Below, piece after piece: positions 4,869-12,366 of a stretch of DNA of 49,621 bases. A program made the translations under genes and the position numbers. Under the pieces are notes generated by a model. The model had not been told where the DNA came from, made no database searches, and saw nothing but the letters and a program-made list of their open reading frames with translations. Numbering within the stretch: the stretch's first letter is position 1; each line of letters begins with the position of its first letter. Source of the DNA: Longibaculum muris. GTDB taxonomy: Bacteria; Bacillota_I; Bacilli_A; Erysipelotrichales; Coprobacillaceae. Location of the stretch: the NCBI RefSeq assembly GCF_004343035.1, contig NZ_SMCQ01000022.1, positions 1 to 49,621 on the forward strand, written 5' to 3'.

Positions 4869-5114
4869 ATGCGTGCCAGTATAAAAGCAACTGAAACCCA
4901 TCTGAAAGAAATATAAGAGTCATCTGGATTAACTGTATCGACTCTAGCTAAGAAAATTGATAAACATTATAATGTCATTTTATCTATTCAAAATGGTTCG
5001 ACTGATCCATCAGTAATGACTGTCAGTGATATCTTAACTGCATTAGGTATGGAATTTGGTGAGGGATATAATGAATTGTTTAAAGAAACGATTCAGGAAG
5101 GACTTTATGAGTAG
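4869..5114 (+). pseudogene. Decayed XRE-family regulator fragment (one in-frame stop)
   Basis: An 82-codon frame with ATG at 4869 and stop at 5112-5114 is broken only by TAA at 4914-4916. Read through, residues 17-56 have the lambda-repressor-like helix-turn-helix layout (SGLTVSTLAKKI, then NVILSIQNGSTDPS, then DILTALGM). The TAA sits where XRE proteins often have a polar residue, and one C-to-T change from CAA (Gln) would explain it. No strong ribosome binding site precedes it. It opens a stretch of four decayed genes. Confidence 0.6.
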
Positions 5115-5131
5115 TCTTATAATTACGATGA

Positions 5132-5437
5132 GACAGTCTTGTAGGTCTGAAGAAACCCGTTAAGGCACAATATGCACTATCGTAAGAGATGGCAAAATCA
5201 GTAGGTATCAAATTAGATAATTATACGAGAGTGGAATAAGGAGAAAGAAACTCATCATTTTGATTGGTTTGTAATATGGCTTCTGGATTAGATATCCTTC
5301 CTTCTGAAATCTTTAATGAAGATTATCAGTGGATATTATGTCAATATGAGCAAAAGAGACAAATAGAAATGTTAATAAATAGTAATCAATATTATTTAAT
5401 AAATCATAAAAATAGAAGTATCAGGATACCTCATTAA
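5132..5437 (+). pseudogene. Second decayed XRE-like regulator
   Basis: One frame, read through stops at 5183-5185 (TAA), 5237-5239 (TAA) and 5261-5263 (TGA), gives a second HTH-like segment (EMAKSVGIKLDNYTRVE, then GERNSSF). It continues in the same frame into an open 53-codon tail (5276-5437; MASGLDILPSEIFNEDYQW). The common frame across three stops indicates a decayed gene rather than chance. The tail has no proper ribosome binding site, so it is probably not expressed alone. The intact ancestor would be an XRE regulator of about 100 residues. Confidence 0.45.
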
Positions 5438-5569
5438 TAATTTTGAATATAGATGTGGGAAAGTCGAACCAAATCTAATTTAGATATAGTTAATAAATAT
5501 CGTTATTTCCAGACAGCTAAATTATTTCTTACAAATTGTTGAAATGTCTATGTTTTTCTCATAATATCT

Positions 5570-6036
5570 TCAAATGTTGAAGTGATTTTTTGCAGTGAAT
5601 TAACCAATATCTTTTGTATCTATAAAACTTGTTAATGATTGATTGGCTGGAATAATAACTGTATTGAAATGCTTGATTTTAAAGTCATGTATGCCACTTA
5701 TTTTTTGCATAAAGAAACTAAGACGAATATGACGGTATGGGAATCTAGTCTCTTCAATATACTTTTCAATTTATCTATAAAAGGTTTTATATCTTCAGGA
5801 TTTTCAAGATGAGTGGAAGCATAATAAAAAACTCTATCAACATCTTCTAAAGCAGCATCAAATGTTGTTGAATCTGTAAAATCGAATTGAACTATCTTTG
5901 CGGTGTTTTTGTATATTTGAATAGGTCCATCTATCTGTGTCCCAGCAACACTAATTTGTTGGCTATTTTTCAAGGCATATTGTGCTTCATATTTGCCTAC
6001 GTTTCCAGATGCACCAGTAATTAAAATTCTATCCAT
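5570..6036 (-). pseudogene. Decayed NmrA-like NAD(P)-binding reductase
   Basis: The ATG at 6036 opens a Rossmann fold (MDRILITGASGNVGKYEA) followed by the NmrA / SDR-a pattern (VQFDFTDSTTFDAAL, VDRVFYYAS). After PFID, near 5770, about 25-30 codons expected in the family are missing and the frame shifts. The family sequence resumes in another frame as IEKYIEET, then SFFMQKISGIHDFKIKHF and SLTSFIDTKDIG, then in-frame stops at 5600-5602 and 5570-5572. The open frame from 6036 to 5698 therefore encodes only a truncated hybrid. Its start overlaps the end of the MarR pseudogene, so the two formed an operon. Confidence 0.8.
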
Positions 6037-6457
6037 TATTTTTTCTTCCCAATAAAATATGATTTGCTTTTTCTGATAAAATGATTAATTCCTAGAAGGC
6101 TTTTTCTCCCAATCCTCTTTCTAATATTGATACAATCTTAAAATATTCTTTAATAGTACTATCTACAAGTTAGATAGAATTTTTTGTATGAACAAGGATA
6201 TAACTATGTTTATCTTCTTTTGATTGTCTCTTTTGAATAAATCCTTTTGATAATAAGGAAGTTACCATATTTGTCGACATAGCTTTTGTAACATTAAAAA
6301 ATTTTGCAACCGTATTTGGTGTTTTTTCTTCGTTTGTTTTAACAAGATAAATAAGGATTCCCTTTTCACTAGGATGAATTGGAAAATTACGTTTTATATG
6401 AGTGTTTAATCTACAAAATAAAGAAATCTATTTTGATGCTATCATTATTTTATCCAT
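6029..6457 (-). pseudogene. Decayed MarR-family regulator with three in-frame stops
   Basis: A full-length frame of 143 codons starts at ATG 6457 and ends at 6029, with GGAAGG just upstream. It has no frameshift but has stops at codons 10 (TAG, 6430-6428), 96 (TAA, 6172-6170) and 122 (TAG, 6094-6092). Read through, it has the MarR winged helix: HPSEKGILIYLV, KTPNTVAKFFNVTKAMSTNM, LLSKGFIQKRQSKEDKHSY. All three stops could have come from CAA or CAG (Gln) by one C-to-T change. The last codons overlap the start of the NmrA-like gene. The family normally represses its own operon through a palindrome, which is still present upstream. Confidence 0.85.
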
Positions 6458-6474
6458 TTTTACCTTCCAATATA

Positions 6475-6526
6475 GTACACTAGATTTACTATATATTTAT
6501 ATGGTACATCTAGTGTACTTTATCAA
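6475..6526 (-). promoter_or_regulatory. MarR-type operator palindrome over the promoter of the dead MarR-NmrA operon
   Basis: GTACACTAGAT (6475-6485) and its exact reverse complement (6508-6518) form a perfect 11-bp inverted repeat around an A+T-rich core. On the minus strand TTGATA (6526-6521) and a weak TATAAA or CATATA sit at the edges of or inside the repeat, as expected for a repressor site. It lies 18 bp upstream of the MarR pseudogene. Confidence 0.65.
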
Positions 6527-6719
6527 TAAAGACTGTAATTATTATTTCAATAAATTTTACTTACTTTTATATACTGTAAAAAATAATATATTTATAATAT
6601 AGATAAATGTTAGTTCATATAAGTAGAAATAATTTCTATATTAAATGTAGAAAATCCTTGGATGGTCTTTATGTCAATAAATGATAAAATAGAAAGTGTA
6701 ATAGGAAGGGAGTGAAATT

Positions 6720-8615
6720 ATGGAAGAGATATATAGTCATATTCTAAAAATAATTAGTGAGAATAGGTTTGTTTCTGCTAAAAATTTAGCTATTGAATGT
6801 CGCTGTAGTGATAAAACAATTAGAACTAGAATTAGAGAAATTAATGATAATCTAAAAGGCGCCAAGATTATTTCAAAACCTAGATATGGATATTGTTTAG
6901 AGATAATTGATGAAAATCTTTATAATCAATCTATAAAGCAAATAAATGATTTATATAAACTCCCAAATAATTCAAAAGAAAGAGTAGAATTTCTTTTGAG
7001 GCTATTACTATCATCTAATCAATATTATAAACGAGATGATTTGAGTGATATATTATATATTTCTTCAAAAACATTGAGTCATGATATACAGAAGTTAGAA
7101 CAAATTATAAAGAAGTATGATCTAAGAATAGAAAGAAGACCAAATTATGGGATTAAAGTTATTGGTTCTGAATTTAATTTTCGTTTATGCTTATCTAGTT
7201 TGATGTTTCAGAATGAAAATGATGGTGAAATTGCTGATCAATTGAATTTAATATCAAAAATACTTACTGAAATTTTTGAAAAATATCATTTTAAAATGTC
7301 TGATATTGCATTGCAAAATTTAATTAATCATATTTATATATCAATGAACAGAATTAAACAAGGGTGGACAATTGTTCCCAAAGGTATTTCATTAAGGAAG
7401 ATGAATATAGATATTGAAAAAGAGTATATAATGGCCAAAGAAATATGTATTATACTCAAAGAAAGAACCGACTGTATTTTTCCAGAATGTGAAGTCGAAT
7501 ATATAGCCATACATTTAGCTGGAAAGAAAATGTGGACTGATTCTGAAAACTTTGTTGTTACTCAAGAAATTATGAAGTTAACTGGAAATATATTAAATAG
7601 GGTTTATGAAAAATTTCATATTGATTTTAGACATAACCTAGAATTGAAATTAGGTTTATGTAAACATTTAGTTCCAATGAAGTTTCGTATCAATTTAAAT
7701 ATGAATATGAGAAATCCGTTATTAAACAAAATCAAGGAAAATTATTTATATGCTTATACAATCGGAGAATATGCTTGTTCAATTATTAGTAGTTATTATG
7801 GTAAAAGCATTGAAGATGATGAAATAGGATATATAGCTCTACATTTTGCACTTGCAATCGAACAGGAACAAACTTTTGTTACAAAGAAAAACATATTAAT
7901 TGTCTGTGCATCTGGATTAGGAACATCACAATTTTTACTATACAAATATAAAGAAGAGTTTGGAAAATATATTGATAAAATTGAAGCGTGTGGAGAAAGA
8001 GAATTAAATAAGATAGATATACAACATTTTGATTACATTTTTTCTACAGTTCCAATTCTTTCAAAAGTTGATATACCCATTATACAAATAGACTATTTCT
8101 TAAATAAAAATGATATCCAAACTATTTCAAAAATATTAACAAATGAAAATCAACATATGTATAAATATTATTCAAAAGAATTATTTATAGTCAATTTAAA
8201 TTGTAAAGATAGAAAAGAAATTATAAAAGAAATGTGTCATACTATTTCTTTGTATGAAGATATTCCTCAAACTTTTGAAAAAAGTATTTTAGAAAGAGAA
8301 GCAATTACATCGACAGAGTTTGGAAATCACGTTGCTCTTACGCACCCATTAGAACCATTGTCTCAAAGAACATTTGCTTGTGTTGCAGTTTTAAAAGATG
8401 CAATCATCTGGAAAGAGAAAGAAATAAAAGTTGTATTCTTAATATCGATAGAGCAAAAGAAAAATAAGAATATTCAAGATTTTTATAAAATGACATCTAA
8501 ATTATTAATGTCAGAAAAGTATATGAATCAATTTATTAAAAATCCTACATTTGAAGATTTAATGACTATTTTATCAACTATAGAAAGAGAGTATGGTGAA
8601 AATAATGCAAAATGA
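6720..8615 (+). CDS. PRD-containing PTS-controlled transcriptional activator (BglG/LicR/MtlR type)
   Basis: A 631-residue regulator. Domain order: N-terminal helix-turn-helix (about 5-60, NLAIECRCSDKTIRTRIREI), a second HTH_11/Mga-like segment (about 85-150, SDILYISSKTLSHDIQKLEQ), PRD1 (about 170-280), PRD2 (about 290-390, EIGYIALHFALAIE), an EIIB-like domain with Cys396 in VCASGLGTSQ, and an EIIA-like domain with His537 in FGNHVALTHP. Such proteins activate a sugar operon when the PTS components phosphorylate or dephosphorylate the PRDs. It lies directly upstream of and overlaps the PTS IIA gene, so it almost surely controls this operon. GGAAGGGAG precedes the start. Confidence 0.95.
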   Translation: MEEIYSHILKIISENRFVSAKNLAIECRCSDKTIRTRIREINDNLKGAKIISKPRYGYCLEIIDENLYNQSIKQINDLYKLPNNSKERVEFLLRLLLSSNQYYKRDDLSDILYISSKTLSHDIQKLEQIIKKYDLRIERRPNYGIKVIGSEFNFRLCLSSLMFQNENDGEIADQLNLISKILTEIFEKYHFKMSDIALQNLINHIYISMNRIKQGWTIVPKGISLRKMNIDIEKEYIMAKEICIILKERTDCIFPECEVEYIAIHLAGKKMWTDSENFVVTQEIMKLTGNILNRVYEKFHIDFRHNLELKLGLCKHLVPMKFRINLNMNMRNPLLNKIKENYLYAYTIGEYACSIISSYYGKSIEDDEIGYIALHFALAIEQEQTFVTKKNILIVCASGLGTSQFLLYKYKEEFGKYIDKIEACGERELNKIDIQHFDYIFSTVPILSKVDIPIIQIDYFLNKNDIQTISKILTNENQHMYKYYSKELFIVNLNCKDRKEIIKEMCHTISLYEDIPQTFEKSILEREAITSTEFGNHVALTHPLEPLSQRTFACVAVLKDAIIWKEKEIKVVFLISIEQKKNKNIQDFYKMTSKLLMSEKYMNQFIKNPTFEDLMTILSTIEREYGENNAK

Positions 8616-8937
8616 AAAAATATCTTATCAGCTTATAACCAATGCTGGAAATTCTAAATCTTATTCAATGTTAGCGATTGAAGCGGCACGAGAAAAAGAT
8701 TTTGTTAAGGCAAAAGAATATTTAAACAAAGCTAAAGATGAATTAAAGAAAGCGCATAGCATACAGTTTGAATTGATTCAAACCGAAGCACAAGGAATTC
8801 ATATGAATATGGATGTAATTCTTGTTCATGCACAAGACCATTTAACAATGGCACTTATGATGAAAGAACAAGCAGAAGAATTTGTCAATATATATAAAGA
8901 ACTTGAAGAATTAAGAACAAAAGGAGGAGTGAACTAA
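8593..8937 (+). CDS. PTS lactose/cellobiose-family IIA component
   Basis: A 114-residue helical protein with the family active-site segment ILVHAQDHLTMALM. The phosphorylated His is residue 79 counted from ATG 8593 and matches His78 of the lactose IIA prototype. It takes phosphate from HPr and passes it to IIB. The gene overlaps the regulator by 23 bp. ATG 8608 is an alternative start and, with GGTGA just before it, perhaps the better one. The C terminus GGVN overlaps the IIB start by one base (TAATG), indicating translational coupling. Length is normal for the family. Confidence 0.95.
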   Translation: MVKIMQNEKISYQLITNAGNSKSYSMLAIEAAREKDFVKAKEYLNKAKDELKKAHSIQFELIQTEAQGIHMNMDVILVHAQDHLTMALMMKEQAEEFVNIYKELEELRTKGGVN

Positions 8938-9263
8938 TGAGACTGATGTTAGCCTGTAATGCTGGTATGTCTACTAGCATGGTTGTTGCACAAATGGAAG
9001 AATCTGCTCTAAGGCAGGGGAAAAATTATATTATATGGGCTGTTGACATTGATTCTGTAGAGGATGAAATAGGAAATTTTGATGTCTTATTAATTGGACC
9101 ACAGATTCAATATAAATTAAGAACACTAAAACGTTTATTAGAAGATCAGGCACCAGTAGATATTATCGATCCTGTTGCTTATGGGTGTTGCGATGGACAA
9201 AAAGTCTTACAACAAGCTGAGAAGTTACTCAATGATTTTCACGAAAGGAGAAACAGAGTATGA
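8937..9263 (+). CDS. PTS lactose/cellobiose-family IIB component
   Basis: A 108-residue cytoplasmic protein beginning MRLMLACNAGMSTS. Cys7 and the following loop are the phosphocysteine site of the family (CxxGMSTS). The rest matches the usual fold, including DVLLIGPQIQYKL. It passes phosphate from IIA to the sugar bound by IIC. AAAGGAGGAG lies just before its start inside the IIA gene, and its TGA overlaps the IIC ATG by four bases. Confidence 0.95.
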   Translation: MRLMLACNAGMSTSMVVAQMEESALRQGKNYIIWAVDIDSVEDEIGNFDVLLIGPQIQYKLRTLKRLLEDQAPVDIIDPVAYGCCDGQKVLQQAEKLLNDFHERRNRV

Positions 9264-10537
9264 AATTTAAAGATAAAGTTTTGGATTTTGTTGAAAAGAT
9301 TACAGAACAAAAACATATAAATGCTATTAAAAAAGGAATGATGGCATATGTACCATTCACTATAATTGGAGCAATTGCATTATTAATAGCATATTTTCCC
9401 TATCAAGGTTATATCGACTTTATAACAAATATATTTGGATTTAAAGATGCCAGTGTATGGCAGAATGCTATAACATCAATAATGAATGGTAGTATGAATC
9501 TAGGTGCTATTATTTCAACATTATTTATTTCTTATCATTTATGTAAGGAGTATAAAGGTGAAATTGATCCCATGTATGGATCTGTACTTAGTTTATGCAT
9601 GTATTTTTTATTAACGCCATGGGATGTGCTTAATGAAAAAAATGTTGTTATGACTAATTATTTTGGAACTGGTAGTCTCATAGTTGGAATTATCGTCGCA
9701 CTTATTGTTCCAGAATTATATAGATGGTTAATGGGAAAAAATAAAATAAAAATCAAGTTACCACCACAAGTTCCTTCAATGGTTGCTGATTCTTTTAGTT
9801 CATTAATTCCAATGACCATTATCTCTATATTATTTTTAATTATTAAACTTGTTATTGGTGTGACTTCATATGGAAATATTCATATCTTCATAAATACTGT
9901 TATTGGTCAACCATTAGCTGCATTAAGTGGTAGTGTCTGGGGATATATTCTTGCTCTATTTATTACTGGTGTTCTATGGATGCTAGGAATTCATGGCTCA
10001 TCAATTGTTATGGGTGGAGTTTTAGCACCATTCTTAATAATGATGTCGGATCAAAATAGATTGGCTGCTCAAGCTGGAAATGCTCTCCCTAATATTCTTA
10101 CAAATGAGTTTCAAACTTTTACGGGTGGAATTGGTCTTTATATTTGCATAGCTTGCTTGATTATTTGTAAAAATAAACAAACAAAGCCATTATGTAAAAT
10201 GGCATTAGTCCCTGCTATTTTTGGAATTCATGAACCATTAGTTTTTGGATTACCAATCATGTATAATTTGTATTTCTTTATTCCTTATGTTGTTTTTCCA
10301 ATGATAGGAGCAGGACTGACATATTTTGTCCAATCTATAGGGTTAGTTGCTAGACTAAATGGAACAGGGGTCCCATGGACAACACCTGCCGGTATTTATG
10401 GCTTTTTAGCAACTGGCGGACATATATCAGGCTTTATTTGGCAACTTGTCCTTGCTGCTTTATATATTGCACTCTGTATACCATTTGTTAAAGCTTTCGA
10501 TAAGAGCAAATTAAAAGAAGAAAATGTAGAATTATGA
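9260..10537 (+). CDS. PTS cellobiose-family IIC permease
   Basis: A 425-residue membrane protein with about ten hydrophobic segments, matching the cellobiose/lactose IIC family: WMLGIHGSSIVMGGVLAPF, PAIFGIHEPLVFGLPIMYNLY and TVPWTTP-like GTGVPWTTPAGIYGF. The GIHEP motif is the substrate/phosphate region. It imports and phosphorylates a disaccharide or glycoside. It starts by four-base overlap with IIB, with GAAAGGAGAAAC just upstream. The substrate may not be cellobiose, because the partner hydrolase downstream is GH63-like. Confidence 0.95.
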   Translation: MKFKDKVLDFVEKITEQKHINAIKKGMMAYVPFTIIGAIALLIAYFPYQGYIDFITNIFGFKDASVWQNAITSIMNGSMNLGAIISTLFISYHLCKEYKGEIDPMYGSVLSLCMYFLLTPWDVLNEKNVVMTNYFGTGSLIVGIIVALIVPELYRWLMGKNKIKIKLPPQVPSMVADSFSSLIPMTIISILFLIIKLVIGVTSYGNIHIFINTVIGQPLAALSGSVWGYILALFITGVLWMLGIHGSSIVMGGVLAPFLIMMSDQNRLAAQAGNALPNILTNEFQTFTGGIGLYICIACLIICKNKQTKPLCKMALVPAIFGIHEPLVFGLPIMYNLYFFIPYVVFPMIGAGLTYFVQSIGLVARLNGTGVPWTTPAGIYGFLATGGHISGFIWQLVLAALYIALCIPFVKAFDKSKLKEENVEL

Positions 10538-10549
10538 TAGGAGAAATTT

Positions 10550-12286
10550 ATGCTTAATTTAATTGATACGCCATTCAGTTATTATGGTTCATATATGGCA
10601 ATTGCATTTTATGATTATCATTTATCTTATCATGGTATTATTACGAATCCAAAAGGAGATGGTTTGTATCTCAAATCGGTAAAAGGTAAGTCTAGGGATT
10701 GTACAGGTGTTTTTAAACTCATACCATATTGTAATGGAAAAGAAGCTGATTATAGTATTGTTTATGATTATCATGAAATAAAATTAATAGGTAAACAATT
10801 TATAATAAAGATATGTTTTGTTAATGATTCAAATGTCATTCTTCATGTAAAAGGTAAAAATATATCTCTTGTGCTTGATACTTTACCACAATCTAAATAT
10901 GATTATTCATTAAAGTTGAATGATGGTACAGAAGATTATTATGTTATTAATAGTTATAAATCTCAAACAAAATATTTTGTGAGTTGTTCTAAAGATATGA
11001 ATTTAAAACAACAATATGCTGATGACATGCAAGGTAGTTCTGAATCAAAATTTGAGATTAATGGTGATGAATTTGATATTATAGTTCAGGATATTCCCAC
11101 CCATATTAATAAAAGGGAAAAGATAGCTTTTACCTATGAAAAATATGCTCAACATGCTAAGAATTATTTTGAAGAATATAGTTTAAGATTTCCTAAACCA
11201 CTTAGTCAGTATAGTCAAACTTATGTCGATGCTATTTACACTACCTGGTCAGCAACAGTGAAGCCAGAAGGATTATTAAAGAGATATTCAACTTATATTT
11301 CAAATACTTTTTTTCCAGGTATATGGAGTTGGGATCACTGTTTTAACAGTATTGGGTTAATGGGAAGTGATAATGAATTAGCTTATAATAATATGATGAT
11401 TGTTTATGATTTCCAAGATCAATATGGACAATTACCTGGTTCAATGAATGATTCAAATATTCACTGGAATTTTGCTAAACCTCCCATTCAAGGATTATTT
11501 ATATCCAAAATGATGCAAGACATTGATTTCGATGAAAATCAGTATGAAGATATTTATGATAAATTATATAAACAAATAAATTATTGGTTAGAGTATCACG
11601 ATTGTAATAATGATGGAATACCTGAGTATCATCATGGAAATGATTCTGGATATGATAATAGTACTGTGTTTATAAATAATTTTGTTGTGGATTCACCTGA
11701 TTTAACAGCTTATCTCATTAGAGGATTAGAAACATTAGAAAAGATAGCTTTATTGCTTCATAAAGATTATTTAAAGATTCAATCTCAAAAGAAAAAACTT
11801 ATTGAACTTTTTAAAGAACATTTTATTGTTGATGATTGTATTATTGCAAGAGAGACAGTCACGCAGAAGATAATAAAATCAGATTCTATTTTACCATATG
11901 CATCTTTAGTTATTGCAAAATACCTCCCCGAAAATATTGTATCAAAGATGATTAATGAGTTAAAAACAGAGTTTATGACAGAATATGGATTTGCAACAGA
12001 AAAAACAACGAGTCCTTTCTATGAAAGTGATGGTTATTGGAGAGGTCCAATATGGGCATCTGAAATGATTGTTTTAATTGATTCGCTGGATGAAATAGGT
12101 GAAAATGAACTTGTTAAAGAAATAATTATAAAATTTTTAAATATTATAAAGAGGGAAGGATTTGCTGAAAACTTTGATGCTCAGACTGGAACAGGTCTAC
12201 GTGATCCAGCATATACTTGGACGAGTAGTGGATTTATATATTTACATAATAAATTGAAAAAGATAATTGAAAAATCCTCATTATAA
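10550..12286 (+). CDS. GH63-like (alpha/alpha)6 glycoside hydrolase (MGH1-like domain)
   Basis: A 578-residue cytoplasmic protein with no signal peptide. An N-terminal beta domain (about 1-190) precedes an (alpha/alpha)6 barrel with GH63/trehalase-type signatures: FPGIWSWDHCFNSIGLM, GQLPGSMNDSNIHWNFAKPP, HHGNDSGYDNSTVF and GFAENFDAQTGTG. By family analogy Asp369 (in SGYDNS) would be the general acid and Glu540 (in FAENFD) the general base of an inverting enzyme. The gene follows PTS IIC by 12 bp and is the only hydrolase of the operon, so it probably cleaves the PTS-imported glycoside, perhaps in phosphorylated form. An alpha-glucoside or glycosylglycerate are candidates. The substrate is inference. 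Confidence 0.8.
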   Translation: MLNLIDTPFSYYGSYMAIAFYDYHLSYHGIITNPKGDGLYLKSVKGKSRDCTGVFKLIPYCNGKEADYSIVYDYHEIKLIGKQFIIKICFVNDSNVILHVKGKNISLVLDTLPQSKYDYSLKLNDGTEDYYVINSYKSQTKYFVSCSKDMNLKQQYADDMQGSSESKFEINGDEFDIIVQDIPTHINKREKIAFTYEKYAQHAKNYFEEYSLRFPKPLSQYSQTYVDAIYTTWSATVKPEGLLKRYSTYISNTFFPGIWSWDHCFNSIGLMGSDNELAYNNMMIVYDFQDQYGQLPGSMNDSNIHWNFAKPPIQGLFISKMMQDIDFDENQYEDIYDKLYKQINYWLEYHDCNNDGIPEYHHGNDSGYDNSTVFINNFVVDSPDLTAYLIRGLETLEKIALLLHKDYLKIQSQKKKLIELFKEHFIVDDCIIARETVTQKIIKSDSILPYASLVIAKYLPENIVSKMINELKTEFMTEYGFATEKTTSPFYESDGYWRGPIWASEMIVLIDSLDEIGENELVKEIIIKFLNIIKREGFAENFDAQTGTGLRDPAYTWTSSGFIYLHNKLKKIIEKSSL

Positions 12287-12333: not shown

Positions 12334-12366
12334 GAGTAGTTATCGCGTAGCGATAGCTACTCTTTT
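12334..12366 (+). terminator. Terminator of the PTS/GH63 operon
   Basis: A stem of GAGTAG plus TATCGC (12334-12346) pairs with GCGATA plus CTACTC (12350-12362) around a GTA loop, followed by TTTT. The sequence overlaps the 3' end of the minus-strand Fic remnant, whose stop codon is inside the hairpin. Confidence 0.8.

What the first reader, a model, noticed from the sequence alone, without database searches (positions are those of the whole stretch)
10550..12286. GH63-like hydrolase as the only glycosidase of a lactose/cellobiose-type PTS operon
Operons with this IIA-IIB-IIC type usually carry GH1 or GH4 phosphoglycosidases. Here the partner is an (alpha/alpha)6 enzyme with WSWDHCFNS, SGYDNS (Asp369) and FAENFD (Glu540), lacks a signal peptide, and starts 12 bp after IIC. 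This suggests a phosphorylated alpha-glycoside or glycosylglycerate route that has not been assigned, or GH63-like enzymes adapted to phosphorylated substrates.
Basis: partly seen in the sequence, partly recalled or inferred. Interest (0 to 1): 0.7.

Follow-up and report, generated by a model that had tools for sequence, protein, structure and literature searches.

The report
Sugar-phosphate-linked GH63-like enzyme operon
This is a conserved bacterial operon in which a sugar importer that phosphorylates its cargo (a PTS) is paired with an enzyme from a family not known to cut phosphorylated sugars, and relatives in other bacteria suggest that a whole branch of that family has specialised for this job.

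Summary
Window 10550-12286 encodes a 578-aa, cytoplasmic, GH63/MGH1-type (alpha/alpha)6 glycosidase. It ends a five-gene operon: PRD/EIIA regulator, then lactose/cellobiose-family IIA, IIB and IIC, then the GH, then a strong terminator. No other glycosidase is present. The same gene order occurs in a distant Bacillaceae genome (locus L113; 41-63% identity per gene), so it is not unique to this strain.

The nearest other relatives (12 loci, 37-44% identity) all lie next to a different PTS, a trehalose-type EIIBC. In contrast, 0 of 73 outside relatives have a detectable PTS of these types, and 44 of 73 have ABC sugar permeases. The PTS-linked enzymes fall in one supported branch (100/100), which also holds one long-branched relative (L084) without a PTS nearby.

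That branch has a signature (K47, R/K49, N252, F255, G297, R/H305, Q/Y368); outside enzymes have K252, M255, D297, W368 in 71/71. Catalytic D369 and E540 and the -1 subsite are unchanged.

Best reading: an inverting phospho-alpha-glucosidase releasing glucose plus a phosphorylated sugar. The sugar is unknown; trehalose and glucosylglycerate are disfavoured. No published GH63 phospho-glycosidase was found in the held library. Phosphate binding is inferred, not measured.

The parts
6720..8615 (+). transcriptional regulator: HTH_11, Mga HTH, two PRD domains, IIB-like, EIIA2 (LicR-like layout)
   Evidence: Pfam PF00874, PF00359, PF08279, PF05043; 41% identical to first gene of L113 operon
8593..8937 (+). 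PTS lactose/cellobiose-family IIA, phospho-site motif VHAQDH
   Evidence: PF02255 1.1e-30, TIGR00823 93.7 bits; 52% to L113
8937..9263 (+). PTS lactose/cellobiose-family IIB, phospho-Cys motif CNAGMSTS
   Evidence: PF02302 2.6e-14, TIGR00853 78.2 bits; 63% to L113
9260..10537 (+). PTS lactose/cellobiose-family IIC permease
   Evidence: TIGR00410 305.8 bits over cut-off 236; below the cellobiose equivalog cut-off 434; 59% to L113; no other match at 1e-90/1e-85 in the order and class samples
10550..12286 (+). GH63/MGH1-type (alpha/alpha)6 glycosidase, predicted inverting phospho-alpha-glycosidase; Asp369 acid, Glu540 base
   Evidence: PF22422 1.6e-35; AF2 model pLDDT 94; VIA Z 36.3 to T. thermophilus MGH, Z 35.6 over 547 aa to YgjK; 49% to L113 GH
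10688..10696 (+). codons 47-49 of the branch-specific GKSR/K loop (alignment positions K47 and R49)
   Evidence: K47 in 8/8 and R/K49 in 8/8 PTS-linked members aligned, K47 in 1/65 outside; held-out members L101-L103, L111, L112 and L113 agree
11438..11464 (+). codons 297-305 (Gly297 ... His305), branch-specific +1-side loop (MhGgH His78 loop)
   Evidence: G297 8/8 vs D297 65/65; basic residue at 305 in 8/8 vs 0/65
11651..11656 (+). codons 368-369: Tyr368 (Trp in all 71 outside relatives) and general acid Asp369
12334..12362 (+). intrinsic terminator closing the operon
   Evidence: 13-pair stem, -19.6 kcal/mol, z -5.3

Best explanation
The operon imports an alpha-linked glucoside through a lactose/cellobiose-family PTS, which phosphorylates it on entry. 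The GH63-type enzyme then hydrolyses the phosphorylated product in the cytoplasm by single displacement with inversion (Asp369 acid, Glu540 base). Most likely an unphosphorylated glucosyl unit sits in the conserved -1 site and the phosphorylated sugar in the remodelled +1 site. The products would be glucose and a hexose 6-phosphate, in the manner of TreC on trehalose-6-phosphate but with an unrelated fold. The PRD/EIIA regulator senses PTS phosphorylation state and controls the operon. Shown: gene content, order, conservation in a second lineage, predicted fold, catalytic residues, one branch holding all PTS-linked genes found, and branch-specific residue changes. Inferred: phosphorylated substrate, position of the phosphate, alpha-glucose at -1, regulation. 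Unknown: the sugar; kojibiose-type or other alpha-disaccharides are favoured over trehalose and glycosylglycerate.
For: Same five-gene order in window and L113 with 41-63% identity. Twelve further relatives (37-44%) each lie beside a trehalose-type EIIBC (TIGR01992, 526-563 bits where scored). That EIIBC is a distinct subfamily in the Bacillaceae and Clostridium genomes (67-100% identical to the L003 copy; canonical copies and others at most 54%; the L009 copy is 53%). TreR-like regulators lie in 7 of the 12 loci. 0 of 73 outside relatives have a detectable Glc-type EIIBC or Lac-type IIA/IIB/IIC; 44 have ABC permeases. Tree: the branch holding the PTS-linked genes 100/100, window+L113 99/94. 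Signature residues changed in the branch while D262, K310, G367, D369, Y496, W497, W502 and E540 are invariant in the PTS-linked enzymes and in all 71 outside relatives. F255, G297 and residue 368 correspond to MhGgH Tyr36, His78 and Met181 (residue roles in PMC6608630). Gain of K47, R/K49 and R/H305 with loss of Asp297 fits an anionic ligand. The predicted fold matches GH63 along its whole length. A ROK kinase-like gene follows TreC in C. tertium (name from sequence only), which would fit glucose as product.
Against: Coordinates of the model were not available, so distances of K47/R49/R305 to the active site were not measured. Lac-family PTS permeases usually carry beta-linked sugars (general knowledge), which sits oddly with an alpha-glycosidase. 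One long-branched relative (L084) inside the branch shares K47, N252, G297 and R305 yet has no PTS nearby; its placement is unsure and its -1 residues are altered. TreC lies in three of the twelve Glc-type loci, so the GH may not be the sole hydrolase there. No biochemical data exist.
Confidence: 0.66

Rival explanations
1. The enzyme is a second, non-homologous trehalose-6-phosphate hydrolase (a GH63-fold counterpart of TreC).
For: Twelve relatives pair with a trehalose-type EIIBC, seven of them with a TreR-like repressor scoring near the TreR equivalog cut-off in the two scored (212.7 and 209.1 against 211.95). GH37 trehalases share the fold (Z 32). In C. tertium the GH lies in the locus with the best TreC.
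Against: The window's own genome has canonical TreC (845.7 bits) beside canonical TreB (688.8 bits) on contig 6. All 8 genomes tested have a TreC over cut-off, and six have an over-cut-off TreB-type EIIBC that is not the GH-linked one. The GH-linked EIIBC are below the TreB cut-off, and the window's IIC belongs to another PTS family.
Confidence: 0.14
2. The substrate is a phosphorylated glucosylglycerate, mannosylglycerate or glucosylglycerol, a GH63 counterpart of the MngA/MngB route.
For: Closest solved catalytic domains are T. thermophilus MGH and M. hassiacum GgH; E. coli MngA/MngB is a precedent for a PTS plus hydrolase on a glycosylglycerate (general knowledge).
Against: 51.5 bits against the 550-bit glucosylglycerate hydrolase cut-off. 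Residues near the glycerate in MhGgH (His78, Trp177) are replaced (G297, N364), and Tyr36 is Phe255. No glycerate or glycerol kinase in the operon.
Confidence: 0.08
3. The enzyme hydrolyses an unphosphorylated oligosaccharide and sits with a PTS only by linkage, or after a phosphatase has removed the phosphate.
For: The wider family pairs with ABC importers or unknown contexts, so its ancestral substrates are presumably free sugars. L084 in the same branch has no PTS nearby.
Against: 14 of 15 branch members in the tree are PTS-adjacent, with two different PTS families and several gene orders. No phosphatase gene in the window or L113 operon. Specific gain of basic residues and loss of Asp297.
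Confidence: 0.12

Closest known systems
E. coli YgjK (GH63 alpha-glucosidase)
   Same: Full-length two-domain architecture (N-terminal beta-sandwich plus (alpha/alpha)6), Z 35.6 over 547 aa; GH63 C-terminal motif aligned
   Different: 17% identity; a free-sugar glucosidase; not in a PTS operon (general knowledge)
Thermus MGH and Mycolicibacterium hassiacum GgH (GH63 glycosylglycerate hydrolases)
   Same: Catalytic domain Z 34-36, 19-20% identity; Asp/Glu catalytic pair and most -1 site residues conserved
   Different: No N-terminal domain; Tyr36, His78, Met181 and Trp177 replaced; 51.5 bits against the 550-bit equivalog cut-off
TreB/TreC trehalose-6-phosphate route
   Same: PTS import, then hydrolysis of a phosphorylated alpha-glucoside; relatives sit beside a TreB-like EIIBC and TreR-like repressor
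   Different: TreC is GH13, a different fold and a retaining enzyme; the window's PTS is lactose/cellobiose-family
LicBCA-LicH / lactose PTS plus 6-phospho-beta-glycosidase operons (GH1/GH4)
   Same: Same IIA/IIB/IIC family and LicR-like PRD regulator
   Different: The glycosidase is GH63-type and matches no GH1/GH4 model
MngA/MngB (PTS plus GH38 6-phospho-mannosylglycerate hydrolase)
   Same: Precedent for a PTS paired with an unusual glycosidase fold
   Different: Fructose-family PTS and GH38; a resemblance from general knowledge, not tested

Membership tests
GH63 (clan GH-G) | (alpha/alpha)6 catalytic domain with GH63 profile | tested here: met
   PF03200 23.8 bits over cut-off 22.4 and PF22422 1.6e-35; VIA Z 35-36 to GH63 structures. 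CAZy assignment itself not testable.
GH63 (clan GH-G) | catalytic acid Asp and base Glu at the positions of MhGgH Asp182/Glu419 | tested here: met
   D369 and E540 align with them and are invariant
GH63 (clan GH-G) | hydrolysis with inversion | not testable with these tools
   needs enzyme assay
glucosylglycerate hydrolase (NF047898 equivalog) | score over 550-bit cut-off | tested here: not met
   51.5 bits
trehalose-6-phosphate hydrolase TreC (TIGR02403) | GH13 TreC profile over cut-off 799 bits | tested here: not met
   no TreC or GH13 match in the scans of the window protein; canonical TreC lies elsewhere in the genome
PTS lactose/cellobiose family permease | TIGR00410 lacE subfamily over cut-off 236; IIA and IIB partners | tested here: met
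   305.8 bits; IIA PF02255 and IIB PF02302 over cut-off
cellobiose-specific IIC (TIGR00359) | score over equivalog cut-off 434 | tested here: not met
   305.8 bits
phospho-glycosidase | activity on a 6-phosphorylated glycoside | not testable with these tools
   inferred from PTS linkage and signature residues only
phospho-glycosidase | conserved basic residues specific to PTS-linked members | tested here: met
   K47, R/K49, R/H305; L084 without PTS also has K47 and R305, so specificity is not perfect
phospho-glycosidase | those basic residues lie at the active site | tested here: inconclusive
   305 falls in the loop between MhGgH His78 and Gln115 by alignment; K47/R49 position in space not measured

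The most novel reading that the evidence does not exclude
A branch of GH63-type enzymes has become a new class of inverting phospho-alpha-glucosidases, and it has been coupled to two different PTS families (Glc-type EIIBC and Lac-type IIA/IIB/IIC) to use an alpha-disaccharide for which no PTS route is known.
Probability: 0.5. Interest if true: 0.72.

Novelty: new variant of a known kind. Interest (0 to 1): 0.6.

Why it matters
Known PTS-coupled glycosidases come from a short list of families (GH1, GH4, GH13, GH32, GH38 and a few others; general knowledge). A GH63 branch doing this job would add an inverting (alpha/alpha)6 fold to that list and would give a signature for annotating such genes. 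It would also point to a PTS sugar that Bacillota use but that has not been assigned. The operon is small and the question can be settled by one enzyme assay.

Tried and rejected
Glycosylglycerate hydrolase membership: rejected by score. Trehalose as the window's substrate: disfavoured, because the genome has its own TreB/TreC. Uniqueness to this strain: first appeared so, since order and class samples and the genome-contig scan gave no second copy of the gene order; overturned by L113. The contig scan had missed it because it relies on exact 8-residue patterns, so more copies may exist. Plasmid-borne origin: listed plasmid matches are at most about 31% identical. Foreign base composition: GC of the operon (0.25-0.30) is like the flanks, so no sign of recent foreign origin by composition. 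Promoter scan: no more sites than noise (57 found, 46 +/- 7 expected). Papers: no GH63 phospho-glycosidase or GH63-PTS link in the held open library; subscription papers are not covered. The host organism was not identified.

Full report
OBSERVATION. The window holds a tight operon on the + strand: PRD/EIIA2 regulator 6720-8615, IIA 8593-8937, IIB 8937-9263, IIC 9260-10537, and GH 10550-12286. The first four genes overlap end to start, and the GH starts 12 bp after IIC with an AGGAGA site. Domain scans confirm lactose/cellobiose-family IIA, IIB and IIC and a LicR-like regulator. IIA keeps the VHAQDH motif and IIB the CNAGMSTS motif, as functional subunits should. The GH matches PF22422 (1.6e-35) and passes the PF03200 GH63 cut-off. 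A strong terminator (13-pair stem, -19.6 kcal/mol, z -5.3) lies at 12334-12362.

FOLD AND CATALYSIS. AlphaFold2 with 74 sequences gives mean pLDDT 94. The best solved matches are GH63 enzymes: T. thermophilus mannosylglycerate hydrolase (Z 36.3, 336 aa), YgjK (Z 35.6, 547 aa, whole length) and M. hassiacum glucosylglycerate hydrolase (Z 34); GH37 trehalases follow at Z 32. Profile alignment to the M. hassiacum enzyme places D369 on Asp182 and E540 on Glu419. In that enzyme these are the acid and base of an inverting mechanism (PMC6608630). Both are invariant here.

GENE ORDER. A contig scan found at least 594 relatives but none closer than 42%. Samples of the window's family, order and class gave no second copy of the operon, and its IIC had no close match there. 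Searching the family around one relative (L005's genome) then found L113 (genome G1016). It carries the same five genes in the same order and direction: PRD 41%, IIA 52%, IIB 63%, IIC 59%, GH 49% identical. The GH proteins of the window and L113 are sisters (99/94), and both have SGYDNS where other PTS-linked members have SGQDNS.

A SECOND KIND OF PTS PARTNER. The next relatives, 12 loci at 37-44% identity, all lie beside a trehalose-type EIIBC. Seven also have a TreR-like repressor and three (L004, L005, L009) a TreC. In the Bacillaceae and Clostridium genomes this EIIBC is a distinct subfamily, 67-100% identical to the L003 copy; the canonical copies and others are at most 54%. The L009 copy is more distant (53%). 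Among 73 outside relatives, no Glc-type EIIBC or Lac-type IIA/IIB/IIC was detected in the flanks held, while 44 have ABC sugar permeases. That test used a few query proteins and flanks of uneven length, so it can miss transporters, including other PTS families.

TREE. The PTS-linked genes lie in one branch supported 100/100, separated by a long branch (0.87) from 34 outside rows. The branch also holds L084, a very long-branched relative without a PTS. Holding the PTS-linked genes together without it is not rejected (p-AU 0.35), so a single origin of PTS linkage is allowed but not proven.

SIGNATURE. On 73 aligned sequences (8 PTS-linked, 65 outside) the PTS-linked enzymes share K47, R/K49, N252, F255, G297, R/H305 and Q/Y368. 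In the outside enzymes residue 252 is Lys, 255 Met, 297 Asp and 368 Trp in 65 of 65, and none has a basic residue at 305. The pattern was read from 8 PTS-linked members and then held in the later finds L101-L103, L111, L112 and L113. With 71 outside rows it is unchanged. The -1 site residues W259, W261, D262, K310, G367, Y496, W497 and W502 do not differ between the groups. Three changed positions align with MhGgH Tyr36, His78 and Met181 (Tyr36 by ungapped extension of one residue). Tyr36 and His78 contact the +1 glycerate or its analogue, directly or through water, and Met181 neighbours the acid. Inference: the glucose site is kept, the aglycone site is remodelled and made more basic, so a phosphate on the +1 sugar is the simplest reading. 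K47/R49 are in an N-terminal-domain loop whose distance to the site was not measured.

WHICH SUGAR. Not settled. Trehalose is disfavoured for the window because TreC (845.7 bits) and TreB (688.8 bits) sit together on another contig. Glycosylglycerate is disfavoured by score and by the replaced residues. GH63 and GH37 enzymes are known for alpha-1,2, alpha-1,3 and alpha,alpha-1,1 glucosides (general knowledge), so a phosphorylated kojibiose-type disaccharide is a fair first guess, at no more than about 0.25.

KNOWN OR NEW. No paper in the held open library links GH63 with a PTS or a phosphorylated substrate; absence there is weak evidence. The works-like claim (PTS plus cytoplasmic phospho-glycosidase) is ordinary. 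What is unusual is the enzyme family and its pairing with two PTS families. I file it as a new variant of a known kind.

LIMITS. The case rests on genome context and residue patterns. Two Lac-type loci are few. The genome scans are samples, and the contig scan needs exact 8-mers. No activity was measured.

Noticed in passing
L093:7533-9206 and L094:7728-9401 (genomes G270, G272, same order as window): A very divergent relative in the same branch has lost several -1 site aromatics (W261F, W497F, W502F, W557S, G367C) but keeps Asp369 and Glu540. It sits in a cluster of HAD phosphatase, OYE/BaiCD-like flavoenzyme, this GH, NagA-like deacetylase and a glycyl radical enzyme, with no PTS detected.
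   Followed up: partly
L010-L082 (outside relatives): A large, apparently uncharacterised family of GH63-like enzymes, often ABC-transporter-linked, with invariant K252, M255, D297 and W368; more distant copies on Sinorhizobium and Streptomyces plasmids.
   Followed up: partly
L113:10498-12159: Downstream of the conserved operon, after a likely terminator, lies a 553-aa mannitol/fructuronate-dehydrogenase-family protein below every equivalog cut-off. It may or may not belong to the route.
   Followed up: partly
window 5000-6700: Upstream of the operon only fragments are seen, such as a short NAD-epimerase-like ORF at 5698-6036 (-), suggesting a decayed stretch.
   Followed up: no
G000:C2:165650-167263: A TreC-like GH13 gene of the same genome carries one in-frame TGA (581 bits): a pseudogene or assembly error.
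   Followed up: no
L009:5442-7946: A fused trehalose-type EIIBC-EIIA (834 aa) lies between TreC and the GH63-like gene in one operon of a Bacillota MAG.
   Followed up: partly
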